The notes under the pieces are model-generated. The model saw only the letters and a program-made list of their open reading frames with translations. It was not told the origin of the DNA and did not search any database. Below are positions 1 through 15,730 of a stretch of DNA of 37,820 nt, one piece after another (within the stretch, counting starts at the first letter, position 1; each line of letters opens with the position of its first letter). Source of the stretch: Okeania sp. KiyG1 (GTDB lineage Bacteria > Cyanobacteriota > Cyanobacteriia > Cyanobacteriales > Microcoleaceae); assembly GCF_014132355.1 (NCBI RefSeq), contig NZ_BLZO01000146.1, forward strand, positions 1 to 37,820, given 5' to 3'. Position numbers and translations under genes: made by a program.

Positions 1-690
1 GCTTGGTTAATTAATAATCCTCTAAAACCAGAACAATCAATAAATAATTCCCCTTCAATATCTCCATGATTTTCGGTTTTCAGAGACTTAATAAAACCTT
101 GTTCAGTTAAGTTCACATCTTGAACTTTATCAACAATGTGATTAACTCCCCTTGAAATAGCCTTTTCTTTTAAATAAGTAGCTAATAATCCTGCATCTAA
201 ATGGTAGCCATAATCAAGTTTTCCTTTGTAATCATCTTCAGTCCCTAATTTCGGAGATTTTTGAGCTAAACAAATAGGAACTTCTTTATGATAACTTTGT
301 AAGTCAAAATCTGGATTATTAAGTTTTTTATCTACTACATAATGAGATAACTCTAACCCATTAACTTCAGGTAATTCGTTAAAAGGATGCCAGAAAACAT
401 CATTTTTTCCTAACCAGTTAACAAATTTTATAGCGATTTTAAAAGTCGCATTACAGCGAGTCATCCATTCTGTTTCATCTAAATCTAAAGATTTAAAAGT
501 TTCTCGAACATTTTGAATGGTAGCTTCTCCAACTCCTACAGTGGGAATGTCAGAAGATTCAATCAGGGTAATGTTACATTTTGGCTTTTCAGGACCTGCT
601 TTATAATCTAAAAAGTTATTAAGTACAAAGCTGATAACCAACCTGCTGTTCCCCACCGACAATAGTAATTTTAGTGATTGGTTTAGTCAT
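1..690 (-). pseudogene. Flavin-dependent tryptophan halogenase, 3'-partial, two frameshifts near the start
   Basis: Reading the minus strand from an ATG at 690 gives MTKPITKITIVGG, the start of a Rossmann FAD-binding site. The expected GGGTAGW only appears if one G is restored in the C/G run at 651-654. A second base must be restored near 619-620 to continue as ALYLNNFLDYKAG. After that the frame is open to the window edge and contains VGVGEATI, the conserved second FAD-contact motif of tryptophan halogenases, then WMTRCNATFKIAIKF and a DCSGFRG-like segment. The family oxidises chloride or bromide with FADH2 and O2 to halogenate Trp, either free or within a peptide. The WxWxIP motif and catalytic Lys lie partly or wholly outside the window, so activity cannot be judged. 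It lies 66 bp downstream of the JmjC gene on the same strand and near the Trp-rich precursors, so a peptide substrate is plausible. Both breaks are one-base losses in short homopolymers: decay or sequence error. Confidence 0.85.
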
Positions 691-756
691 TATTTATTTG
701 TTTTTCAAAACAACAAGATTTTAATTGGGAATGAGAATTAACTAAAATAGGAAAGT

Positions 757-1679
757 TTAAAGCTTAATATTTAAGGCATTAGACTTTGTCGATTTCAGTT
801 TACTCAATGAGAAAGAAAGACTCGAATCAGATACAAGATTAAGTTGACTAAGTTGACTATTTACCGTTGCTTTTTGTTTTGTATTTAATCGTGATTTACG
901 CTGCTCTAAACTATTTTCAAGATTGTAAAGAATAGAGTTAAAACCGTAAGCAATTGCTTGTATTAGATTAAATAAATTATAGGTAATCGCAATGGAATCA
1001 GAGACATTACAAACCTGATGTAACCATTTGGCTGGTAAATACACCATTTCTCCTGCTTGAAGATCAAACTCATAATAAACATCTACTTTTTCTTTTAGTT
1101 CAGAAGTATTAGGTGTAAATTCATCTAAGTAATCTTCAAGTTTTTGCCCTTCTTGAGGATCGACTACAAACCAACGTTTAACTCCCTTGACTAATCCCAT
1201 CCAATTAGGAGTATTACAGACATCAATATGAAGTTGACTTCCTGTGTTTGCATAACCAATTAAAATACGAGGATAAATAGGACGCAAAGATAAAGGAATC
1301 ATATTTAACCACTGAGGATTTTGTAAACAGGATGGAATCTTAATTTCCTCCAGCATTTCGGGATGGGTCAGAGGAAACAACCATTCATCCGCTTGATATT
1401 CTAGGGTAGTAATATTGAGTTTTTTCCGAATTTGAGGTAAATGATTAGGCTGACATTTTTGCCAAATTTCGGTTTTAGGATCTCGAATTTGAACTTTGTT
1501 TAAATTTCCTCGATCTTCTCCCTTATAAGGAATCTTTTTAAATAAGTTAAATCCCAAGTATTTGCACCCCATTGACTAACACACCCTCGAATAATACAAG
1601 GTTTTTGATTCCAATAATCCTTGACAAAACAACTCTGAAAAGTAGTTTCATAATCAAGATAATCAATATTTTTTTGCAT
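757..1679 (-). CDS. JmjC/cupin-like Fe(II)/2-oxoglutarate oxygenase (one frameshift)
   Basis: The product starts MQKNIDYLDYETTF at 1679, runs through KPCIIRGCVSQWGA and WDLTYLK, then must shift frame at the T/A run 1535-1539 (one base missing) to continue as the 757-1572 frame. The catalytic part is intact in that second frame. It has the Fe-binding H-x-D in SQLHIDVCNTPNW, a basic residue in KGVKRWFVVDP for 2-oxoglutarate, and the distal His in GEMVYLPAKWLHQV. This is the layout of cupin-8/JmjC hydroxylases, which hydroxylate side chains such as Arg, Lys, Asn or His in proteins or peptides. It sits between the NHLP precursors and the halogenase on the same strand, which suggests that it modifies the Arg-rich cores; that substrate is inferred. 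A start at 1733 is also open, but 1679 fits the family N-terminus better. Confidence 0.8.
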
Positions 1680-1786
1680 TATATTTCTGATAATTTTGAC
1701 ATGACTAAGCTTAATAGCAGGGGAAGAAAGCAATTTTATTCTTACTTCTCCCCACTTAATATTAGATAGTCAATCTATTCAGTATT

Positions 1787-1903
1787 TACCAACCAATAGA
1801 CCAACAACGTAAGACACTACTTCTTCTTCAATAGTCTGTTTAGGACTTTGGATTAATTTTTGTTTAAAGGTGTTGTCTTGGCTAGCTTTTACCTCTAAAA
1901 TTT
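1787..1903 (-). pseudogene. Deleted remnant of a third NHLP precursor
   Basis: On the minus strand this segment reads KASQDNTFKQKLIQSPKQ, which is the start of the fourth NHLP repeat of the two complete precursors. It then jumps directly to sequence matching the last codons of precursor B; read in the matching frame the end is CWSIGW then stop, against RRWSIGW in B. The core-coding DNA and the second half of repeat 4 are therefore lost. The segment abuts the 3' end of precursor A, and the last residues of A (RAKF) are created at the junction. It shows that the array once held at least three precursors and shrank by recombination between repeats. Confidence 0.75.
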
Positions 1904-2812
1904 AGCACGGTAAATAGGTATAGTAGGAGTCCGCCAAGGACGACGAAACCAACGACGAGTACGGATACGGAACCAACGACGACGACGACGCCAACCACCA
2001 GTAACTGACATCATTTCTTCCGATTCCACTTCCTCTTCTGAGGGTAAATGTGGTATGATAAAATAAGATGTATTAGAAGTTTCTTCCAGAACTTCTACTT
2101 CAACCCAAGAAGGAAGAGTGAACCCTAATTCTTCTTCAATAGTCTGCTTAGGACTTTGGATTAATTTTTGTTTAAAGGTGTTGTCTTGGCTGGCTTTTAC
2201 CTTTAAAGCACTTAAGGGATCGCTTTCTTCTCCTTCTTGGGTATTCATTTCATCTTCTAAAAGAATATAGCGTTGAAAATCAGTTTCTTCCTTGACTTGG
2301 ATTTCTTGATTCTCATCCGCTACAATACCAATCTGTGCCAAAGTAGATTTCGGTTCACTTAACAAGTTTTGTTTAAAGATAGGATCTTGCCATGACCGTT
2401 CAATCACATACTGCATATCCGGTTGAGGTGGAATTACCAAATAACGAGTATCAGCAGTTTCCTCAACTACAGTAACTTCAACATTCTCAGGAATAGCTTG
2501 GCCTAATTCTTCGCTTAAAACTGTTTTAGGATTAGCTAACAAAGCTTGTTTAAATGCCTCATCCTGCATAGCTTTACTGCGGACATATTCTAATAAAGTC
2601 TCAGCACCTTTGTCAGGTGAGCCTTCCACAGGAATTACGATATAACGATGAGCATCCGTTTCAGCAACAGCAATGAAATTAATTCCTTCGGGTAGGGTAA
2701 TTCCTTCTTGTTGCAAGGTAGCAAGAGGATTATCGAGTAAACTTTGCTTAAATTGGGGTTCACGCCATGCTTTTTCATAGATAGGCGTTAAACCAGTTGG
2801 ACTTTCTTTCAT
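1895..2812 (-). CDS. Proteusin-like RiPP precursor A: four tandem NHLP domains, GG, Arg/Trp-rich core
   Basis: 305 residues. Residues 1-267 are four repeats (about 1-70, 71-132, 133-198, 199-267). Each carries the nitrile hydratase alpha-subunit-like leader signature: an aromatic/acidic helix ending FKQ.LL..P, then L...G, and a beta segment ending ET...RY.VIP. A linker rich in Glu leads to SVTGG (GG at 272-273), a double-Gly type leader cleavage site. The remaining 32 residues begin WRRRRRWFRI and contain 13 Arg and 4 Trp. Known NHLP (proteusin) precursors normally have one leader domain; four in series is unusual. Function inferred: ribosomally made, modified by the adjacent halogenase and JmjC oxygenase, cleaved after GG. 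The start at 2812 gives the full first repeat. The strongly basic, Trp-rich core would suit an antimicrobial or nucleic-acid-binding peptide, but nothing here proves that. Confidence 0.85.
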   Translation of the reverse strand: MKESPTGLTPIYEKAWREPQFKQSLLDNPLATLQQEGITLPEGINFIAVAETDAHRYIVIPVEGSPDKGAETLLEYVRSKAMQDEAFKQALLANPKTVLSEELGQAIPENVEVTVVEETADTRYLVIPPQPDMQYVIERSWQDPIFKQNLLSEPKSTLAQIGIVADENQEIQVKEETDFQRYILLEDEMNTQEGEESDPLSALKVKASQDNTFKQKLIQSPKQTIEEELGFTLPSWVEVEVLEETSNTSYFIIPHLPSEEEVESEEMMSVTGGWRRRRRWFRIRTRRWFRRPWRTPTIPIYRAKF

Positions 2813-3494
2813 TTTTTGATTGATTACAATTGCTTAATGTGTAGATTTAGTTTTTTAATCTACATTGCTTTGATTTTTAATGCAATCTACTTAAGATTTT
2901 TCAAGGATTGCGATCGCCCTTCGTTAGAAAAGAGGAGGAGACGGCAGGATGGCAAGGATTTAACCTTATTATTAAGTTAATAAGGTTCACAAAAAGTGCC
3001 AACAACTCATCTCACAGAGCTGCCGAGGCAAAATTGCCAAAGCTGATGCAGACCAACTTCAGAATTTATCAGGAATTGATAATAGCTTCGGAAAATTTTT
3101 GTCAGAAAACAGACTCGAACAGAAGTGGGAAAAAACGCCCCATCAAAAGCACCTTGGAAAAGCTAGACCTGATTAGTGGCAAGCCAAGGGGCTGAAGTTA
3201 CAAAAGAGAGTCGTCGGAGTACACTCAAAAAAAAGTGTTTCCTATTGATGAGTGCCAACGACTCGTATCATAGAGCTGAGGAAGATACCAAGACCCTCAC
3301 AGGGATAGAAGTCAATAGAAGACGACCCTGGTTTGTTGTCCTGGGTAAACGCCCAACATTTTGCCGAGACGTTTACCTGTTTGGGGAATAAACATAGTGG
3401 GTTCTAGAACATCTTCCTTCAGGTGAGAGAACCACAGCAACTTTATGAAGTGCTAGACTGGATATCTCTATGATGGAAAATTCCTAATAAGTAT
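2813..3494. other. Spacer between the two precursor genes, with a long inverted repeat and no recognised gene
   Basis: No recognisable protein. Two open frames on the plus strand (2908-3195, 3176-3391) have no family features and odd composition. The block AGTGCCAAC.ACTC followed by AGAGCTG occurs twice (about 2996 and 3251). GAGTCGTCGG...CACTC (3208-3226) pairs with GAGTGCCAACGACTC (3250-3264). A further 8 bp pair is GGTAAACG (3344-3351) with CGTTTACC (3370-3377). This could be an insertion-sequence remnant or a structured RNA. A HIP1 site lies at about 2909. Confidence 0.5.
3208..3264. repeat. Long imperfect inverted repeat
   Basis: The arms at 3208-3226 and 3250-3264 share about 15 complementary bases, with a one-base mismatch and a four-base bulge (AGTA). 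The A-rich loop contains a nested CACT/AGTG pair. It could be a transposon end or a folded RNA; the inner arm motif is repeated near 2996. Confidence 0.5.
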
Positions 3495-4433
3495 TTACCA
3501 CCCGATAGACCAACGGCGTGTGCCACTACGGCTTGTATAACCGATACCGCCGCTACGTCCAAGGCGAACACCCCAGCTACCACGAGCACGAATCCAACGA
3601 CGACGACGACGCCAACCACCAGTAACAGCCATTATTTCTTCTGATTCTACTTCCTCTTCTGAGGGTAAATGTGGTATTATAAAATAAGATATATTGGGAG
3701 TTTCTTCCAGAACTTCTACTTCAACCCAAGAAGGAAGAGTGAACCCTAATTCTTCTTCAATAGTCTGCTTAGGACTTTGGATTAATTTTTGTTTAAAGGT
3801 GTTGTCTTGGCTGGCTTTTACCTTTAAAGCACTTAAGGGATCGCTTTCTTCTCCTTCTTGGGTATTCATTTCATCTTCTAAAAGAATATAGCGTTGAAAA
3901 TCAGTTTCTTCCTTGACTTGGATTTCTTGATTCTCATCCGCTACAATACCAATCTGTGCCAAAGTAGATTTCGGTTCACTTAACAAGTTTTGTTTAAAGA
4001 TAGGATCTTGCCATGACCGTTCAATCACATACTGCATATCCGGTTGAGGTGGAATTACCAAATAACGAGTATCAGCAGTTTCCTCAACTACAGTAACTTC
4101 AACATTCTCAGGAATAGCTTGGCCTAATTCTTCGCTTAAAACTTTTTTAGGATCAGCTAACAAAGCTTGTTTAAATTCCCCATCCTGCATGGCTTTACTA
4201 CGCACATATTCTAATAAAGTCTCAGCACCTTTGTTGGGTGAGCCTTCTACAGGAAGTACCATATAACGATGAGTATCAGTTTCAGCAACAGCAATGAAAT
4301 TAACTCCTTCGGGAAAGGTCATTCCTTCTTGTTGCAAGGTAGCAAGAGGATTATCAAGTAAATTTTGCTTAAATTGGGATTCACGCCATGCTTTTTCATA
4401 AATAGGCGTTAAAGCAGTTGGATTTTGTTTCAT
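3495..4433 (-). CDS. Proteusin-like RiPP precursor B: four tandem NHLP domains, GG, Arg/Trp/Gly-rich core
   Basis: 312 residues. The leader is exactly as long as in precursor A (273 residues, ending AVTGG) with the same four NHLP repeats. Residues about 106-245 are identical or nearly so to A, also at DNA level, while residues 1-105 differ at many positions. That pattern suggests recent duplication or gene conversion of the middle. The 39-residue core starts WRRRRRWIRAR like A, then diverges to a Gly/Ser/Arg-rich tail ending RRWSIGW, with 5 Trp and 12 Arg. Constant leader with variable core is the usual pattern for a promiscuous RiPP machinery. It is the most upstream gene of the minus-strand cluster; the tnpB element lies just upstream. 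Substrate role for the neighbouring halogenase and oxygenase is inferred. Confidence 0.85.
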   Translation of the reverse strand: MKQNPTALTPIYEKAWRESQFKQNLLDNPLATLQQEGMTFPEGVNFIAVAETDTHRYMVLPVEGSPNKGAETLLEYVRSKAMQDGEFKQALLADPKKVLSEELGQAIPENVEVTVVEETADTRYLVIPPQPDMQYVIERSWQDPIFKQNLLSEPKSTLAQIGIVADENQEIQVKEETDFQRYILLEDEMNTQEGEESDPLSALKVKASQDNTFKQKLIQSPKQTIEEELGFTLPSWVEVEVLEETPNISYFIIPHLPSEEEVESEEIMAVTGGWRRRRRWIRARGSWGVRLGRSGGIGYTSRSGTRRWSIGW

Positions 4434-4589
4434 TTTTGATTGAGTAGAATTGCTTAACTAGATTTATTAGTTAGCTACTATACAACTACTTTTATTGGAA
4501 CTGCAATATAATTAATATTTTATTTAGTATTTTTACACTAATTCATAAATACTTGTTAAGTACCTAAACAAAATTATTTACCGGAAAAT

Positions 4590-5960
4590 TGGGGTAGGTG
4601 CCTCCCCCTTTGAGGGGGACTTTTTAATGTATATATTAGTTGCAGATATGCTGAACTGTGTGCTATATTTTTATCGTAGCATTAAAAGATAAAACATTTC
4701 TATGCTCATCTATGAAATGAAGTTGCAAGGCACACAAGGCCAGTATAATCAGCTAGACTCAGCCATTAGGACTGGTCGATTTGTGCGCAATAGCATTATC
4801 CGAGCATGGATAGACAGAGAAGTTAAAAGTCGTAACGATGCCTACAAATACTGCACAAAACTAGCACACAATCCTAAATTTCCCTGGGCCAAGCAACTTA
4901 ACTCCATGGCAAGACAAGCTCATGCTGAGAGAGCATGGGCAGCAATAGAAAGATTCTATCAAAACTGTAAAGCTAATGTTGCTGGTAAGAAGGGTTTTCC
5001 CAAGTTTAAAAAATACCAAATTAGAGACTCAGTAGAATACAAAACTAGCGGATGGAAACTATCAGAAGATAGACGCTATTTAACTTTTACTGATGGCTTC
5101 AAAGCAGGTACTTTTAAGCTTTGGGGTAGTCGAAACCTTCATTTCTATCAAATCAATCAAATCAAACGAGTCAGAGTTGTCAGAAGGTATGATGGCTACT
5201 ATGCTCAATTCTCAATCGACCATACTAGAGAGGAGAAGAAAAATCTTACAGGAACTCAGTTAGGAATAGACTTAGGTTTAAATCATTTCTACACTGACTC
5301 AGCTGGTGAAAAAGTAGATAATCCGAGATTTTTGAGACAAGGTGAACGTAAAATCAAGAAACTACAACGTCGCCTTTCTCGTACTCAAAAGGGTAGTCAA
5401 AATAGGAGTAAAGCTAGGAATAGGTTAGGTAGAGCGCATCTAAAGGTTTCACGCAGACGTAACGACTGGGCAGTTAAATTAGCGCAGCGCGTCATACAAT
5501 CTAACGATTTGGTAGCGATAGAAAACCTGAAAGTGCGTAACATGATGAAAAACCATAAGTTAGCGAAGTCCATAGCAGATGCAGCATGGTACAGGTTTAG
5601 AGAATGGTTGGAGTATTTTGGCAGAGTCTATGGTGTGCCTGTAGTAACAGTAGAACCTGCATATACTTCTGTAAATTGTTCAAGTTGCGGTGAGAAAGTT
5701 GTGAAGACCCTCAGCACTAGGACTCATCAATGTCCACACTGTGGTTATGTTGCCGACAGGGACGAGAATGCAGCTATCAATATACTCCAATCAGCATTAA
5801 GAGAATTAGCAACTACCCTGGGGCACAGGGAAAGTCACGCCTCTGGAGAGAACGACCTCTGCTTGGTTGAGGAAACTCAGGCAAGTAAGCCGACTCGAGG
5901 AAAGAGGAAAGTCCCGCAGTGATGTGGGAATCCCCTCGCCTTTAGGCAGGGGAGGATGTC
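4590..5960 (+). mobile_element. IS200/IS605-group solo tnpB element (IS1341-like)
   Basis: Left-end hairpin TCCCCC-TTTGA-GGGGGA at 4603-4619, then tnpB, then a right-end hairpin about 5931-5953 (CCCCTCGCC, loop TTTA, GGCAGGGG) followed by GGATGTCAA. No tnpA Y1 transposase is present, so it is a non-autonomous or relic solo-tnpB type common in cyanobacteria. The 3' end of tnpB plus the right end is where a guide (omega) RNA would be encoded. Exact ends are approximate. Confidence 0.7.
4702..5922 (+). CDS. tnpB: TnpB RNA-guided nuclease of IS200/IS605 family
   Basis: 406 residues with a complete RuvC fold. The first catalytic Asp is in QLGIDLGLNHF, the Glu in LVAIENLKVRNM, a four-Cys zinc ribbon in CSSCG and CPHCG, and the last Asp in VADRDENAAINIL. 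All three acidic residues are kept, so the protein may be active. TnpB proteins are omega-RNA-guided DNA endonucleases that help IS200/IS605 elements persist after excision. The C-terminal tail beyond about residue 365 is low in family features and probably overlaps the RNA-coding right end. It stands alone without tnpA. Confidence 0.93.
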   Translation: MLIYEMKLQGTQGQYNQLDSAIRTGRFVRNSIIRAWIDREVKSRNDAYKYCTKLAHNPKFPWAKQLNSMARQAHAERAWAAIERFYQNCKANVAGKKGFPKFKKYQIRDSVEYKTSGWKLSEDRRYLTFTDGFKAGTFKLWGSRNLHFYQINQIKRVRVVRRYDGYYAQFSIDHTREEKKNLTGTQLGIDLGLNHFYTDSAGEKVDNPRFLRQGERKIKKLQRRLSRTQKGSQNRSKARNRLGRAHLKVSRRRNDWAVKLAQRVIQSNDLVAIENLKVRNMMKNHKLAKSIADAAWYRFREWLEYFGRVYGVPVVTVEPAYTSVNCSSCGEKVVKTLSTRTHQCPHCGYVADRDENAAINILQSALRELATTLGHRESHASGENDLCLVEETQASKPTRGKRKVPQ

Positions 5961-6027
5961 AAATGAAAAATAGTATTGTGTTAAACTATTTGTGATTATC
6001 AAAATCAAAGAGTAATAAAGTCAATGT

Positions 6028-9000
6028 ATGTCACTCCCTGCTGTTTTACATCCTGATATAGTTGAATTTCTCCGAAAAGATGCGGAAAGTAATTTACAAA
6101 AAAAAAGTATGGGAATGTATTAAAAAACTAAAGCAGCAAAAATTTGATAGTGGGTTACGAGTTAAAAAGCTGAAGGGGATAAATAAAAGAGTATGGGAAG
6201 CTAGAATTAATAGTGCTAGTCGCTTAATTTTTACCTACAATAAATCATCAGAACCAGAGACAGGAAAAATGCAAGTTTATCTGGCAATTCAAGATATTTG
6301 TGTAGACCATGATGATGTATCACGACGTGCTAAAGCGAGGAAGAAAAGTCCTGATTCAGAATGGTTAGAAACAGAAGAAGTAGAAGTGGTTTTAGAAACT
6401 AGCAATTTTCAAAACCAGAATAATTACAGCGATGAAAATAATCAATACTCAGCAGTAGAACAAACAAATATTGAAATAGTAGAAGCTCTAAAGTTGGAAC
6501 TCAATTCAGATTTGACAGATGATGAGTTGTTAGGAAATATTCAGTGGCGAGTATTAGAGTCAGAAGCGGAATGGCAAAAGGCAATTATTGAGCAAAATAC
6601 AGATTTACCTTTAAAGCTGACAGCAGAAGAGTATGAACTTGCTAGACTCTCAGGAAATCTTTTATTAAATGGTAGTGCTGGTACAGGTAAAACCACAGTT
6701 GCATTATATAGAATGCTGCAAAAAAGAAAGTATAACAATTCAGGGAAACGTTTATATATTGCCTATAATCATTTGCTAGTTAATCACGCAAAGGAACAGT
6801 TTGATAAAATAGTCGCAGATAGTGAATTAGAAAAAGCAGAAAATAATCAAATAAGTCAAATAATTTTTGAGTTTAAAAATCTTCAGGAACTATGTTTGGA
6901 AATTCTGAGTAACTATCATCAAGAATATTACGTTCAAGATGAAGTAAATTATCAAGTTTTTTCGGAAATTTACAAAGCACACCCTCGAAAAAAACAATAT
7001 TCAACAGCTTTAGTATGGGAAGAAATTAGAAGTGTTATTAAGGGTAAACAGTTAGCTACTACAGAAGATGTTTTATCTGAAAAAGCTTATGAAGAAATTA
7101 GTAAAAATAGTATGGTTTGTCTGGAGGAAAAGCATCGCAGAGAAATATATAATATTGCAAAGTGGTATCAGAAAAAGCTGCAAAAAGAAAAATTATATGA
7201 TGAAATAGATTTAGTTAGACAAGTGTTGAGATTGATTGAAAATAATTATAGTGAAAAATATGATTTGATTGTTTGTGATGAGGTACAAGATTTAACAGAA
7301 ATACAATTAGAGTTATTGTTTAATTTAGTGGGTCCTAATGGCAATTTGTTTTTTGCTGGAGACTCCTATCAAATGATTAGTCCTAGTGGTTTTCAATGGG
7401 AAAAACTCAAACATAAATTTTATCCTCACAGAAAAGTAGATAGACAAACTTTAAAATTTAATTTTCGTAGTGTAGGAAGCTTAGTTAATTTAGCCAATCA
7501 ACTACTAAAATTACGTTCTCGATACTTGGCAGAATCAACAGAAAGTTACTCTACGACAAACAGTAGCAATGGTCAATTAGCTAGGATGATTTCAGCAGAT
7601 TGTTCAACATTAATCAAAACATTAAAAGAAACATCTTTATATCCTGGTGATGCTATTTTAGTCAGAAAAGAATCAGATAAAGAAAAAATTAGATCCGAAC
7701 TAAATTCTAGTTTTGTTTTTACAATTGAAGAAATAAAAGGATTAGAATTTGATACAGTTTTTCTCGTAGAATTTTTTCAGCCTACAAAAAAACTTTGGGG
7801 TAAAGTCATACGAGGTAGCTTATTAAAAGAAAAAGAAAAACCAGCATTTAAACTAGAATTAAATTTACTTTATGTAGCAATTACCCGTGCTAGTAGAATA
7901 TTAAATATTTGGGAATCACAACTTAGTGCACTCTGGCAAGAACCAGAATTAACAGGTTTATTTCAATCAATAATTCCCGAATTAGTAAGAAGCGATCGTG
8001 TAAATCCTAGTTCAGAAACATGGCGTAAACAAGGAGAATATTATTTGAAAGCAGGATTCTATCAACAAGCAAAAGAATGCTTTACTAAATCCGGCGATCT
8101 AATTTTAGAAAAACAAGCTCAAGCCAAATTATTAGTTCAAAAACAAGCTTATGAAGAAGCAGCAAAAATATTTTTTGAACTAAAAGAATGGCAAGAAACT
8201 GCACTACTATTGGAGAAATTAAAAAAATGGCAATCAGCAGCAAGATGTTGGGCAAAAATTGGAGAAAAACAGAGGCAAAAAATTTGTGAAGCTTACAACT
8301 TAGAAGAAAACTTAGAATGGTTAGCAGCAGCAAAAAAATGGCAAGAACTCGAAAACTTTGCTAATGCTAAACGCTGCAAGATGAATATTCCCGAAAAAAA
8401 AGCAGAATACCAAGCTATTCAATTTGAAAATAAAAAACAATGGCTTAAAGCTGCTTATGAGTATGACTTAGCAAAAATTCCTCGGAAAGCCGCATTGTGT
8501 AGAGCCAAAGAATTTGAAAATAAAAAACAATGGGAAAAAGCTATTATTCAATATCAAATAGCAGGAATGAAAGAAAAAGCCAAAAACTGTAGGGTTCGAG
8601 GAGTAAATGAACTACATAAACAAGGACTGATTAAACTACAAAAAAGAGATAATATTGGCGCTCTAGAAAACTATAACCGAGCAATAATACTAGATCCAAA
8701 TAATCATCAATTTTACAATAACAAAGGTATTATAATGGCTCAATTGGGAAACTTCAAGGCAGCAATAGCAAATTTTCACAAAGCATTAAAACTTGAACCA
8801 AAAGACCCCCAAAGTTATCATAATTTAGGGGCAGCTTATGCAGAATTAGGCAAATTTAATCAAGCCATAAATCTTTTTTATCAAGCTCTGAAACTTAATC
8901 CTCAAGACTCTCAAATTTACCATAACTTAGGAGTAGTTCGTTTTAAAGCAGGAGACGCAAAAGGAGCAATAGCAGATTACGATCGAGCAATAAAATTTAA

Positions 9001-10303
9001 TCCCACAAAAATCGAAGCTTACTATAATCGAGGTATTGCCCGTCGTTTCCTTGGAGACCAGCAAGGTGCAATTGATGATTTCACCACATTATTAAAACTA
9101 AATCCTCAAGTTGTAGATGCTTATATACAACGAGGTAATGTTAGGTTTAATATGAAAGATATAAAAGGAGCGATGGCCGACTTCAACGAAGCAATTAAAC
9201 TTAATCCTAAACATCCTGAAGCCATTTACAACCGAGCTATAGTCCGTCGTTTGATGCGAGATAACAATGGCTCCCTAGAAGATTTTAACCAGGTGATACA
9301 AATTAATCCTAACTATGTGGATGCTTATATCAAACGAAGTATAGTTCGTTTCGATCTCGGAGAGCATCGCGGTGCTTTAGAAGACTTAAACCGTGCAGTA
9401 CAACTTCAACCCAAAAATGCAGAAGCTTTTTATCATCGAGGTAACACTAAGCGAAGTCTGGGAAACTTTCCTGGAGCAGTCGCTGATTTTCAGACCGCCA
9501 TAAATCTCAACTCCCAATATCATCAAGCTTATAACGACCTTGGCATTGTACGTCTGAGAATGGGAGATATAAAAGAGGCAATGAAAGACTTTGAAGCAGC
9601 TATACAAATTAATCCTAACTATGCTGAGGGTCATAATAACCGAGGCTTTACCAAATTTAGATTAGGAGATATAGAAGGGGCAATGAAAGACTTTGAGATA
9701 GCTCTAAAAATTAATCCTAACTATGCCGAAGCACATAATAATCTCGGAAATGCTCGCTTTCAAACAGGAGATTTTCAGGGAGCTATTTATGAGTTTGGCG
9801 AGACTATACGTATTAATCCCAACTATGTTCCTGCTTATAATAATCGAGGTTTAGCTCGTTTGAAATTAGGAGGTTTTTCTGAGGCGATCGCTGATTGTCA
9901 AGCAGCGCTAAAAATTAACCCTAACTATGCTTTGGCCTACTATAACTTGGGCTTAATTCACTGTGAAATGGGAGATTTGCAGCAAGCGATCGTAGACTAT
10001 AATGAAGTATTAAAATTGTATCCGAGAAAAATAGACGCTTATATTAACCGAGGGTTAATTCATATGAAGTTAAAAGACTATGCTCAAGCGGTTAAGGATC
10101 AAAGCAGTGCTATAAATATTAATCCGAATCTCGGTCGCGCTTATTGTTGTCGTAGTGAAGGATATATGAAGTTAGGAAATATTCAAGCGGCTCTTGATGA
10201 TTTACATAAAGCAGCAGAAATTTATCAACAACAAGGAAAGAGAGGAGAATACGAAAAGATTATCAAGACTATTAATAGTATGAAAGATGATAGCGATCGA
10301 TAG
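6028..10303 (+). CDS. RelE-like domain / UvrD-type SF1 helicase / TPR giant fusion (N-terminal frameshift at an A9 run)
   Basis: The longest frame opens only at a TTG at 6062 directly after TAG. A better N-terminus, MSLPAVLHPDIVEFLRKDAE, starts at ATG 6028 in the neighbouring frame and joins by a one-base shift in the run of nine A at 6098-6106. Numbering below follows the 6062 frame (1413 aa). Residues 10-95 resemble a RelE/HigB-type toxin fold (RVKKLKGINKRVWEARI, HDDVSRRA). Helicase motifs follow: Walker A GSAGTGKT at 204-211, Walker B DEVQD near 407, GDSYQM, FNFRSV, EIKGLEFD, and YVAITRA near 605. A helical zone (about 655-845) leads into 16 TPRs of 34 residues with NPNYAEAHNN-type spacing. 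Likely a nucleic-acid helicase scaffolded by TPR protein contacts; a defence role is possible but unproven. Monocistronic, AT-rich like its surroundings. Confidence 0.88.
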
Positions 10304-14499: not shown

Positions 14500-15730
14500 T
14501 AACGTTACAATTTGATGTTTACTTCCTGCTTCCACTGAGGCCGTTGGCGGTTACTCATCCACAGGCATTCACGGTCAAGCCGACCGCATCTCTTGAGTGC
14601 GTCTTACATTCTGAGGTTTCCTCAGAATTACGCACTCGCTTTCTTAAATTTATACTGGCATTTAAATCTCTATCCATTGATAAGCCACATTCTGGGCAAT
14701 CATAAGTTCTCAGATTTAATGGCATATCTTGGACGTGACCACAGTTTGAGCAAGTCTTTGATGATGGAAAAAATCTATCAACTACCACTAGCTCAGAACC
14801 GTACCATTCACACTTGTACCCAAGCTGTCTCCTAAACTCATAAAATCACTATCTGCTAACTGATTTTCGCCAGCTTATGATTGGCTAACATTCCCCTCAC
14901 ATTCAAATCTTCAATTGACACACTGCCGTGGTTTTTGGCTAAGTATGTTGTCAATTTATGAAGTGCGTCTTTACGGATGTTAGCTACTTTTCCATGTAAC
15001 CTAGCTATCTTCAGTTGTGCTGCCCTCCAGTTAGCAGAACCCACCTTTTTATGACGATTTAGGTATTGACATCTAGAGAGTTTAGCTTCAAATCTCTGAT
15101 ACGATTTCACACTTTCAAATACTTTTCCATCACTTAAAGTAGCTAAGGTTTTTACACCTAAATCTACACCTATGACATCAGTTGTTTTGGGTGTGGTTGT
15201 GGCATGAAATTCATAGCTACAACTGATATACCAATCCGAAGCTTGCCTACTAATGGTTATTTTTTTAGTTGTTGCTTCAATCGGTTCATAAGTTTTTACC
15301 CATCCAATGAAAGGTAATTTATGATCCCATCCATTTAATTCTATTGGCTTTCCACAATTATCAATTGTGTTTGCGTAGCATTCCGTAGGAAAAGAATCAG
15401 ACTTACCTTTCTTCTTAAACCGTGGGCATTTACCCAATCCTTGAAAAAACCTTTTAAATGCTTCACCCAAGTTAATAAAAGCATATTGATAAACTTTAGA
15501 TGACAAGTTTTTCATCCAAGGATAAAGTGGTTTTGTGTGATTGGTAAAAACCTCTCTCAACTTACGAGCATTTGGTTTATAGCTATCTTTATATGCCTGA
15601 TTCCACAAACTTAAACCCCAGTTATAACACCAGCGTGAATAGCCAGCGTGTTGAGCCATCAGAGTTTTCTGTTTATTATTAAGTTTCAGCTTTGTTCTAA
15701 TGGATTTCATTTATGGGTGAGTGCAGTCTG
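14500..15730 (-). mobile_element. Solo tnpB element, decayed
   Basis: Contains the broken tnpB below. Downstream of the tnpB stop on the minus strand is GAGTAACCGCCAACGGCCTC and then GTGGAAGCAGGAAGTAAAC, the kind of right-end/omega-RNA sequence found after this TnpB type in cyanobacteria. No tnpA. Borders are approximate. Confidence 0.6.
14555..15710 (-). pseudogene. tnpB: tnpB, frameshifted twice
   Basis: Residues 1-284 of the first frame carry the TnpB N-terminus (GYSRWCYNWGL), RuvC-I DVIGVDLGVKTLA and RuvC-II VSIEDLNVRGM. The frame then breaks after NHKLAKIS. Restoring one base at 14858-14859 and one at 14842-14845 yields the family sequence DSDFYEFRRQL and KCEWYGSELVVVDRFF, followed by the zinc ribbon CSNCG and CPECG and the last catalytic site MDRDLNASINL. 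All catalytic residues are thus present in the DNA but not in one frame. Both lesions are one-base losses in short runs. It is a different TnpB lineage from the copy at 4702. Confidence 0.88.

What the first reader, a model, noticed from the sequence alone, without database searches (positions are those of the whole stretch)
1..4433. RiPP cluster with quadruple-NHLP leaders, Arg/Trp-rich cores, a tryptophan halogenase and a JmjC oxygenase
Seen: two precursors each with four tandem NHLP domains, a GG motif, and 32- or 39-residue cores starting WRRRRRW with 12-13 Arg and 4-5 Trp. A JmjC HxD...H oxygenase and a tryptophan halogenase follow on the same strand. Known: NHLP leaders define proteusins, normally with one leader domain, and flavin halogenases that brominate Trp in NHLP-type precursors have been described from sponge-associated cyanobacteria. 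Inference: the halogenase acts on core Trp and the JmjC enzyme on Arg or another core side chain. Four leader domains on one core, and an oxygenase with an Arg-dense core, may be a new architecture. Several leaders could dock several enzymes at once.
Basis: partly seen in the sequence, partly recalled or inferred. Interest (0 to 1): 0.88.

Follow-up and report, generated by a model that had tools for sequence, protein, structure and literature searches.

The report
Four-leader, arginine-rich modified peptide cluster
This is the left-hand remnant of a cyanobacterial gene cluster that most likely makes short arginine- and tryptophan-rich peptides, carried on an unusual leader of four repeated domains, with arginines turned into ornithine and tryptophan halogenated; the chemistry is predicted, not yet shown.

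Summary
In detail: two precursors (1895-2812 and 3495-4433, minus strand) each carry four TIGR03793 NHLP domains (E 5e-60 and 4e-60), a GG motif and Arg/Trp-rich cores of 32 and 39 residues, followed by a JmjC gene and a Trp-halogenase gene. In this assembly both enzyme genes are interrupted by single-base homopolymer differences, and the halogenase runs off the contig end.

Relatives supply what lies off the edge. Okeania sp. SIO3B5 (L034) and a cyanobacterium of another family (G538, L123) have the cassette intact: quad-NHLP precursor(s), JmjC, halogenase, an arginase-like domain fused to TPRs, and an MBL-fold protein. The arginase keeps all six Mn ligands, and its profile's best PDB hit is the peptide arginase OspR (E 0.0026). 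In biphenomycin biosynthesis a UPF0489 arginase annotated as a TPR protein makes ornithine and a JmjC enzyme then hydroxylates it (PMC12707348).

Best reading: a proteusin-like RiPP cluster for an ornithine-rich peptide, probably hydroxylated and halogenated, perhaps at its C-terminal Trp. Products are not shown. It is a new variant of a known kind; the four-domain leader and the enzyme combination are the new parts.

The parts
3495..4433 (-). precursor W2: four NHLP domains, GG, 39-residue core ending ...RRWSIGW
1895..2812 (-). precursor W1: four NHLP domains, GG, 32-residue core ending ...IYRAKF (3' end probably a recombination junction)
4239..4403 (-). W2 NHLP repeat 1 (profile 9-63 of 77)
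4038..4211 (-). W2 NHLP repeat 2 (profile 7-63)
3864..4031 (-). W2 NHLP repeat 3 (profile 8-63; below the cut-off on its own)
3615..3827 (-). W2 NHLP repeat 4, the only one that runs to the profile's end (9-77, ends at GG)
3498..3614 (-). W2 core peptide (12 Arg, 5 Trp, 0 Lys)
2618..2782 (-). W1 NHLP repeat 1 (profile 9-63)
2417..2590 (-). W1 NHLP repeat 2 (profile 7-63)
2243..2410 (-). W1 NHLP repeat 3 (profile 8-63; below the cut-off on its own)
1994..2206 (-). W1 NHLP repeat 4 (profile 9-77)
1898..1993 (-). W1 core peptide (13 Arg, 4 Trp, 1 Lys)
1786..1910 (-). relic of a third precursor: piece of NHLP repeat 4 followed, in another frame, by a core tail ...RCWSIGW and stop
757..1572 (-). 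JmjC/Cupin_8 oxygenase, catalytic part (HID...H kept); frame broken near 1535
1536..1733 (-). N-terminal piece of the JmjC gene in another frame (part of ORF 1500-1733)
3..662 (-). flavin-dependent Trp halogenase, N-terminal two fifths; frame broken near 610 and 651; cut by contig edge

Best explanation
The window holds the precursor end of a proteusin-like RiPP cluster. Two precursors present variable, Arg/Trp-rich cores on a conserved leader of four NHLP domains. Shown by sequence: two intact relatives encode, with their precursors, a JmjC oxygenase, a Trp halogenase, an arginase-TPR protein and an MBL-fold protein; the last three follow one another in both, while the JmjC gene lies after the precursor in L123 and the window and before two precursors in L034. 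Inferred: (1) the arginase-TPR enzyme hydrolyses core Arg to ornithine; (2) the JmjC enzyme then hydroxylates ornithine, as BipG does after BipC; (3) the flavin enzyme halogenates core Trp, perhaps the C-terminal Trp that ends 6 of 7 complete cores; (4) enzymes are guided by the leader, whose fourth repeat alone has the docking tail; (5) the acidic leader (net -27 to -31) also offsets the charge of the basic core (+8 to +16); (6) cleavage at GG and export use an NHLM C39 transporter encoded elsewhere. The MBL protein's step is unknown. In this genome the arginase gene was not found and two enzyme genes are frame-broken, by sequencing error or very recent decay.
For: Four NHLP per precursor in two cyanobacterial families: by profile in the window, L034 (Okeania) and L123 (G538), by alignment in L004. 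Full cassette intact in L034 and L123. Arginase domain: six metal ligands invariant in 6 of 6 intact homologues; NCBIfam peptide-arginase model NF052474 hits all 6 at E 4e-9 to 7e-6, though far under its cut-off; profile's top PDB hit is OspR 8BRP, E 0.0026. In 7 of 7 genomes found with this arginase an MBL gene and a NHLP or Nif11 precursor lie beside it, some judged by eye. Cores hold 81 Arg and 1 Lys while their leaders hold 42 Arg and 121 Lys (Fisher p 7e-32, rows not independent; with W1 and L123 only, p 5e-11). C-terminal Trp in 6 of 7 complete quad cores, in a further core tail at the edge of L034 and in 8 of 8 Nif11 cores of L109, L124, L125, L110, against 4 of 202 background ORFs. BipC/BipG chemistry: PMC12707348 passages; SrpI and C-terminal Trp: PMC12615548 passages. 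Selection, from small counts: dN/dS 0.11 halogenase (9 synonymous, 4 non-synonymous codons), 0.22 leaders, 0.47 JmjC.
Against: No product or activity is known. The arginase domain fails the Pfam UPF0489 cut-off (14.5 against 27 bits); a single-sequence PDB search found no arginase; in the OspR match the best stretch alone scores only 14.4 bits, E 0.22; the second Glu of the EEH(N/H)EAF motif is absent (EEHSS/EEHSA). No arginase-domain match in G000 itself. The halogenase groups with free-Trp halogenases, and the lost amino-acid clamp is also lost in L112, L114 and L115, which show no precursor. No BipG, BipC or SrpI sequence was compared. W1, a window core, does not end in Trp. L124 has Trp cores but no halogenase gene noticed. 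No exporter or protease was noticed in L034 or L123. JmjC dN/dS of 0.47 hints at weak constraint. The AlphaFold model of the precursor is of low confidence (mean pLDDT 46).
Confidence: 0.6

Rival explanations
1. The enzymes modify the core, but differently: the arginase-like protein is not an arginase on this peptide, and the JmjC enzyme acts on Arg, Trp or another residue directly; the product keeps its arginines.
For: Arginase domain is under the Pfam and NCBIfam cut-offs and lacks one motif Glu. JmjC's best solved relatives are JMJD6 and histone demethylase-type enzymes at weak E-values (1.8e-7 and worse).
Against: Six Mn ligands invariant; OspR is the profile's best PDB hit; cores use Arg to the near exclusion of Lys, which charge alone would not require; the arginase accompanies RiPP precursors with Arg in the core in 7 of 7 genomes, though with only one Arg in the cores read of L107 and L126.
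Confidence: 0.2
2. The four-NHLP protein carries an unmodified cationic, Trp-rich peptide that is simply cut at GG and released; the neighbouring enzymes serve something else, for example free tryptophan.
For: The halogenase's nearest solved relatives (5lv9, PrnA, Thal) are tryptophan halogenases by name. Arg/Trp-rich peptides can be membrane-active without modification (recalled).
Against: Same genes together in two families; halogenase lacks PrnA Y443, Y444, E450 and F454 that clamp the free amino acid (roles recalled); an arginase is hard to place with an unmodified Arg peptide.
Confidence: 0.1
3. In this particular genome the cluster is decaying and silent: the frame breaks are real, and the arginase and MBL genes are gone.
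For: Breaks in JmjC and halogenase, relic third precursor, W1 core junction, no arginase match in G000; JmjC dN/dS 0.47.
Against: The coding breaks seen are one-base changes in homopolymers of 5 or more, and a gene outside the cluster (helicase-TPR, near 6106) shows the same kind, as base-calling errors would; halogenase dN/dS 0.11; the contig ends inside the halogenase and the assembly is 92% complete, so the missing genes may just be unassembled.
Confidence: 0.3

Closest known systems
Proteusins (NHLP-leader RiPPs), e.g. landornamide A with peptide arginase OspR (Kamptonema)
   Same: NHLP leader, GG boundary, cyanobacterial host, arginase-type gene with Arg in the core (papers PMC10028609, PMC12703449, passages read)
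   Different: Four NHLP domains instead of one (single domain of OspA recalled); Trp halogenase and JmjC instead of OspD and OspM (epimerase and, recalled, lanthionine synthetase); more Arg in the core (landornamide has two ornithines); arginase here has a TPR C-terminus
SrpI/SrpE: leader-dependent proteusin Trp brominase of sponge microbiomes
   Same: Flavin-dependent halogenase beside an NHLP precursor; C-terminal Trp as target or as core end; hydrophobic-x4-hydrophobic tail before GG
   Different: SrpI sequence not compared here; no arginase or JmjC is mentioned for srp in the passages read; single leader domain
Biphenomycin (bip/bpm/pbs): arginase BipC/PbsE plus JmjC/cupin ornithine hydroxylase BipG/PbsQ
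   Same: UPF0489 arginase annotated as TPR protein, with DxHxD motif, in one cluster with a JmjC-type oxygenase (PMC12707348, PMC12257519, passages read)
   Different: Streptomyces or Peribacillus hosts, FRF core, MNIO and B12-rSAM cross-linking; no halogenase and no NHLP leader in the gene lists seen
Nif11-leader clusters with the same arginase-TPR and MBL pair (L109, L124, L125, this work)
   Same: Arginase domain 57-58% identical to the Okeania one, adjacent MBL gene, short Trp/Arg cores ending in Trp, PF04820 gene in two of three
   Different: Nif11 leader, no JmjC gene recognised, a FAD_binding_4 oxidase (profile-tested in L109) instead, different PF04820 subtype (443 aa)
Two-NHLP precursors elsewhere in cyanobacteria; fused TIGR03795 pairs in Delftia and Acidovorax (PMC2887384, passages)
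   Same: More than one NHLP unit in one polypeptide
   Different: Two units, not four; no Arg/Trp-rich core in the two read here (L117, L118)

Membership tests
Proteusin / NHLP RiPP precursor (TIGR03793) | NHLP leader domain over the curated cut-off | tested here: met
   199.2 and 199.8 bits, cut-off 50.9, four stretches each
Proteusin / NHLP RiPP precursor (TIGR03793) | Gly-Gly leader/core boundary after the last domain | tested here: met
   GG at 272-273 in both; profile runs to position 77 at that point. Cleavage itself not tested
Proteusin / NHLP RiPP precursor (TIGR03793) | Maturation enzymes encoded beside the precursor in more than one genome | tested here: met
   L034 and L123 hold precursor, JmjC, halogenase, arginase-TPR, MBL
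Proteusin / NHLP RiPP precursor (TIGR03793) | NHLM C39 exporter beside the cluster (usual, not obligatory) | tested here: not met
   TIGR03796 search places the G000 match on C183, the G001 matches listed on contigs other than C345 and C410, the G538 ones on contigs other than C137 (list cut)
Peptide arginase (Pfam UPF0489 / NF052474) | Curated profile cut-off | tested here: not met
   UPF0489 14.5 bits against 27 (L034 domain); NF052474 25.8 to 36.3 bits against 350, E 4e-9 to 7e-6
Peptide arginase (Pfam UPF0489 / NF052474) | Six Mn-coordinating His/Asp in EEH, DxHxD and DIDID motifs | tested here: met
   H12, D33, H35, D37 and D164, D166, D168 (among which the last two ligands) invariant in 6 of 6
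Peptide arginase (Pfam UPF0489 / NF052474) | Full EEH(N/H)EAF motif | tested here: not met
   EEHSS or EEHSA in 6 of 6
Peptide arginase (Pfam UPF0489 / NF052474) | Arg to Orn activity on a peptide | not testable with these tools
   needs expression and mass spectrometry
Flavin-dependent Trp halogenase (PF04820) | Profile match over cut-off | tested here: met
   L034 490.9 bits, L123 500 bits, window fragment 184.8, cut-off 21
Flavin-dependent Trp halogenase (PF04820) | Catalytic Lys and Glu (PrnA K79, E346; roles recalled) | tested here: met
   conserved in L034 and L123; Lys also in the window fragment, Glu lies beyond its edge
Free-tryptophan halogenase (PrnA type) | Amino-acid clamp Y443, Y444, E450, F454 (roles recalled) | tested here: not met
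   L034 has other residues at 443/444 and a gap over 450 to 454; the segment is absent in 7 of 9 aligned homologues (L034, L123, L110, L111, L112, L114, L115) and present in L113 and L116, so its loss is not special to the cassette
JmjC 2-oxoglutarate oxygenase | HxD...H iron ligands within a JmjC/Cupin_8 match | tested here: met
   HID...H in window, L034 and L123; window PF02373 49.4 bits against 24
BipG-type ornithine hydroxylase | Sequence kinship with BipG and activity on peptidyl ornithine | not tested

The most novel reading that the evidence does not exclude
A new proteusin subclass in which a four-domain, strongly acidic NHLP leader acts as a multi-enzyme docking scaffold and charge mask, allowing one polybasic core to be processed by arginase, ornithine hydroxylase and halogenase into an ornithine/hydroxyornithine-rich, halotryptophan-ended peptide that would otherwise harm the producer.
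Probability: 0.3. Interest if true: 0.8.

Novelty: new variant of a known kind. Interest (0 to 1): 0.62.

Why it matters
What several structured NHLP domains do on one precursor can be tested directly here: SrpI needs only the tail of its leader, while the YcaO enzyme MprC needs the folded part too (PMC10858898, PMC12455567, passages), so a leader with four folded parts and one tail separates the two. The cassette also joins three side-chain chemistries that were not found together in the papers seen here: peptidyl Arg to Orn, ornithine hydroxylation and Trp halogenation. The arginase-TPR plus MBL gene pair is a usable genome-mining handle: in 7 of 7 genomes found with it, a RiPP precursor lay beside it.

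Tried and rejected
Window-only reading: it cannot explain the Arg, because the arginase lies past the contig edge; relatives were needed. A search for the missing halogenase C-terminus and the arginase elsewhere in G000 found neither (the other PF04820 matches, on C127, are weak, 50 and 40 bits). Full-length arginase-TPR as a genome query was swamped by TPR proteins: 56 of 62 genomes matched, but in the rows listed only G001 matched in the arginase domain, so the domain alone was used. Plasmids: no arginase-domain match; the precursor finds only distant NHLP or nitrile hydratase matches in 7 records; the halogenase finds 91 records, the ten rows listed all under 42% identical. Six halogenase homologues from other genomes (L111 to L116) showed no GG-type precursor that I could recognise nearby; the pattern scan gave three small ORFs in L112, L113 and L115 that I set aside by eye, and L116 is only 4 kb. 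So this halogenase family is not RiPP-only. Orthology of the four repeats by position: repeats 1, 3 and 4 of W1 match the same-numbered repeat of L123 best (49, 49, 59%), repeat 2 does not (39%; its best is 47%, to L123 repeat 3). Structure prediction of the precursor (4 sequences) gave mean pLDDT 46, pTM 0.27; it draws four three-helix units and one extra helix at 259-265, but I do not rely on it and ran no fold search. Literature: no paper came up in the held library that joins halogenase, arginase and JmjC in one RiPP cluster or describes four-NHLP precursors. I saw listings with starts of abstracts, and opened eight papers for passages (PMC12703449, PMC12615548, PMC10858898, PMC12455567, PMC2887384, PMC12707348, PMC12257519, PMC10028609; of the first also the opening fifth). 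Two listed papers with three of the terms (PMC10373908, PMC12710340) were not opened, and subscription papers are mostly absent.
Full report
What is in the window. The window is the whole of contig C146 of genome G000 (10.98 Mb, 198 contigs, 92% complete). On the minus strand, reading from about 4433 down to 1, come precursor W2 (3495-4433), precursor W1 (1895-2812), a JmjC/Cupin_8 gene (757-1572) and the first part of a PF04820 halogenase (3-662). Both precursors hit TIGR03793 with four stretches (199.2 and 199.8 bits, cut-off 50.9). A whole-genome search with that family finds eight matches, all of them these; two of the eight (repeat 3 of each) are under the cut-off on their own. Repeats 1 to 3 of each precursor align to profile positions 7-63 at most, while repeat 4 alone aligns to the end, 9-77, where the GG lies. 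In 202 background ORFs none has more than five Arg in its last 32 residues; W1 has 13 and W2 seven in that stretch.

Damage. The JmjC N-terminus is in another frame and the halogenase N-terminus is broken twice. Compared with the Okeania relative, the breaks are one-base differences in homopolymers near 610, 651 and 1535. A gene outside the cluster, helicase-TPR, has the same kind near 6106, and non-coding homopolymers at 701, 2897 and 4433 differ too. This looks more like base-calling error than old decay. Substitution patterns agree for the halogenase (dN/dS 0.11, from 9 synonymous and 4 non-synonymous codons) and leaders (0.22 and 0.22), less clearly for JmjC (0.47), against 0.26 for the helicase-TPR gene. 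Directly after W1 is a relic of a third precursor: a piece of repeat 4 followed, in another frame, by a core tail ending RCWSIGW and a stop (1786-1910). Its homology starts inside the last codons of W1, so the odd end of the W1 core (AKF) is probably a junction.

Who has it. The nearest relatives are Okeania sp. SIO3B5 (contig NZ_JAAHHG010000468.1, 7901 b, the same length and precursors as G001:C410, so I take G001 to be that organism) and a fragment at a contig edge of Trichodesmium sp. MAG_R03. Near-full-length precursors are in 2 of the 6 genomes of the window's genus searched, own included, and an edge fragment is in one further genus of the family; the other matches in that search of 60 relatives are distant. 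Since G001 is of the same genus as G000 by the tool's kinship column, the window is probably an Okeania; this is inference. A search of 388 genomes of the class found NHLP domains in 80; in the rows listed only G000 has four in one frame, while two per frame occur in several (for example G242, G307, G375, G247, G315) (the list is cut). A search of 217 genomes of G538's family with the G538 precursor found matches in 56, but only G538 itself over the full length; no other listed match spans more than about 162 residues.

The intact cassette. G001 has a second contig (C345 = L034, 9197 b) with, on one strand, JmjC 8096-9019, two quad-NHLP precursors 7001-7930 and 5814-6740, halogenase 4054-5649 (531 aa), an arginase-like protein with TPRs 2615-4045 (476 aa), an MBL-fold protein 750-2213 and a 65-residue peptide with a GG and an Arg/aromatic tail 373-570. 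Before the JmjC gene the contig edge shows one more core tail...GRSPWRIRW and a stop. G538, of another family, has in L123 a quad-NHLP precursor 6071-7048 (206.7 bits, four stretches), JmjC 4846-5607, halogenase 3210-4823, arginase-TPR 1724-3169 and MBL 174-1649. In the window the contig stops inside the halogenase, where arginase and MBL would follow. G000 has no match to the arginase domain and no second match to the halogenase.

The arginase. Pfam calls only TPR-type families in the full protein; UPF0489 appears at 14.5 bits, below its cut-off of 27, when the N-terminal domain is scanned alone. NF052474 (peptide arginase, FlmR/OhkR family) matches all six intact homologues over the same stretch, E 4e-9 to 7e-6, far under its strict cut-off. 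The metal ligands of peptide arginases (motifs from PMC12703449 and PMC10028609, passages) are invariant, but the second Glu of EEH(N/H)EAF is not there. A single-sequence PDB search finds no arginase. A profile of the six finds OspR (8BRP) as the best PDB sequence, E 0.0026 for the whole chain (best stretch alone 14.4 bits, E 0.22), aligned over all three motifs. So it works like a peptide arginase on paper, but by curated cut-offs it is not a filed member. The domain was found in 2 of 388 class genomes, 6 of 192 genomes of family f25 including those two and G001 in the own family: seven genomes. In seven of seven an MBL gene and a NHLP or Nif11 precursor lie beside it; the precursor of L125 and the MBL genes of L123 to L126 were recognised by eye (that of L123 also by weak profile matches), the others by BLAST or profile. 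In one, G472, the arginase is internally shortened to 192 aa.

The substrate side. Over seven cores there are 81 Arg and 1 Lys, over their leaders 42 Arg and 121 Lys. If only charge were wanted Lys would do as well, so Arg seems required as such, as an arginase would demand. The seven rows are related; with W1 and the G538 precursor alone the contrast remains (30 to 1 against 13 to 38, p 5e-11). Six of seven complete cores end in Trp, W1 being the exception. All eight Nif11 cores read in L109, L124, L125 and L110 end in Trp too, against 4 of 202 background ORFs. The two NHLP clusters that have the arginase but in which I noticed no halogenase (L107, L126) have no Trp in the core read, and only one Arg. 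L124, with Trp cores, also shows no halogenase gene in the stretch read, so the link is not perfect; L124 and L126 were judged from the ORF listing, not by profile.

The halogenase. In the PDB it is closest to tryptophan halogenases (5lv9, PrnA, Thal; E 2e-134 to 8e-120) and clearly further from the RiPP chlorinase MibH (5uao, 3e-61) (that 5uao is MibH is from PMC10858898). Aligned to PrnA it keeps K79 and E346 but has other residues at Y443/Y444 and a gap where E450 and F454 lie. Of nine homologues aligned, L113 and L116 keep that segment and seven lack it: the two cassette enzymes, L110, L111 and also L112, L114 and L115. That the segment holds the free amino acid is recalled. The thermophilic halogenase 5lv9, a tryptophan halogenase by name, is also short there, so the loss allows but does not prove a peptide substrate. 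SrpI brominates a C-terminal Trp in a leader-dependent way (PMC12615548, passages) through a LXXXXL motif just before GG (PMC10858898, passages). The quad leaders have hydrophobic residues at matching spacing there (V-ESEE-M, I-SEEE-M), single NHLPs have L-SEEA-L.

The oxygenase. The JmjC protein keeps HID...H and matches JmjC and Cupin_8 over cut-off. The solved relatives are weak, JMJD6 first at 1.8e-7. In G538's family 18 of 217 genomes match the L123 JmjC at E 1e-15; apart from G538 itself the listed matches are 27-38% identical. In biphenomycin biosynthesis the UPF0489 arginase BipC is annotated as a TPR protein and the JmjC enzyme BipG hydroxylates ornithine but not arginine (PMC12707348, passages); PbsE is called TPR-rich, and PbsQ and BpmG behave like BipG (PMC12257519, passages). 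The same pair of gene types here makes ornithine hydroxylation the best guess; I had no BipG sequence to test kinship.

The leader. Repeats 1, 3 and 4 of W1 and of the G538 precursor match best by position, repeat 2 does not, so a four-repeat ancestor is likely but not certain. The leader carries a net charge of -27 to -31, the core +8 to +16. Two roles are open: extra folded parts as docking sites, since MprC binds the folded part and SrpI only the tail (PMC12455567, PMC10858898, passages), or charge masking of a polybasic core. Nothing here decides between them. An AlphaFold model of the W1 precursor is of low confidence.

Export. I saw no exporter in the first 10 kb of the window or in the ORFs listed for L034 and L123. 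An NHLM peptidase/ABC gene (TIGR03796) is present on G000:C183 but in two frames around what looks like a low-complexity stretch; in G001 the match is divided at nearly the same profile position on two contigs; G538 has full-length copies on other contigs. Whether these serve the cluster is unknown.

Novelty. I found no paper in the held library that describes four-NHLP precursors or a cluster joining halogenase, arginase and JmjC (listings and passages only). Fused pairs of NHLP-family precursors are in print for Delftia and Acidovorax (PMC2887384, passage). Each enzyme type except the MBL protein has a counterpart in RiPP pathways in the papers seen; the leader architecture and the combination appear new. 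I file it as a new variant of a known kind.

Noticed in passing
window 1786-1910: Relic of a third quad-NHLP precursor; its homology begins inside the last codons of W1, so the W1 core end looks like a recombination junction.
   Followed up: partly
window 1898-1993 and 3498-3614: Core Arg codons are almost all CGT (12 of 13 in W1, 10 of 12 in W2), which would let the runs change length by slippage.
   Followed up: no
window 4702-5922 (+) and 14856-15710 (-): Two TnpB/OrfB-type transposon genes; the first sits between the precursors and the helicase-TPR gene and was not among the ORFs listed for the matching Okeania contig L004.
   Followed up: no
L034 373-570 (-): 65-residue peptide with a GG and an Arg/aromatic tail ending FFFRRR after the MBL gene; no family match; maybe another substrate.
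   Followed up: no
L034 5717-5929 and 6907-7119 (-): DNA like that of the JmjC C-terminal tail is repeated behind each precursor (second place 65% over 37 residues by BLAST, first by eye), as if precursor copies spread with a piece of the neighbouring gene.
   Followed up: no
L034 about 9150-9197: The last bases of this Okeania contig resemble a sequencing adapter (recalled), so the contig end is probably an artefact just beyond the core tail GRSPWRIRW.
   Followed up: no
L169 (G000:C183) 7354-9518 (-): NHLM C39 exporter split in two frames around what looks like a low-complexity stretch; in G001 the match is divided at nearly the same profile position.
   Followed up: partly
L107 (G208) and L126 (G472): Clusters with the arginase-TPR and MBL pair plus NHLP precursors, NHLM-type exporters and rSAM-type genes (TIGR04517 epimerase and exporters profile-tested in L107 only), with an NRPS-like gene alongside; arginase internally deleted in L126.
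   Followed up: partly
L109, L124, L125: Nif11-leader peptides with short cores such as WFENLRIRLGNDAPITIRQW beside the arginase-TPR and MBL pair, a FAD-linked oxidase and, in L109 and L125, a 443-residue PF04820 protein: apparently a second RiPP type that I did not find described.
   Followed up: partly
L110 (G167:C26): Close halogenase relative beside a Nif11 precursor with core FYYGNSRGSSCSQW, a radical SAM-like gene (by eye) and a 2OG oxygenase.
   Followed up: no
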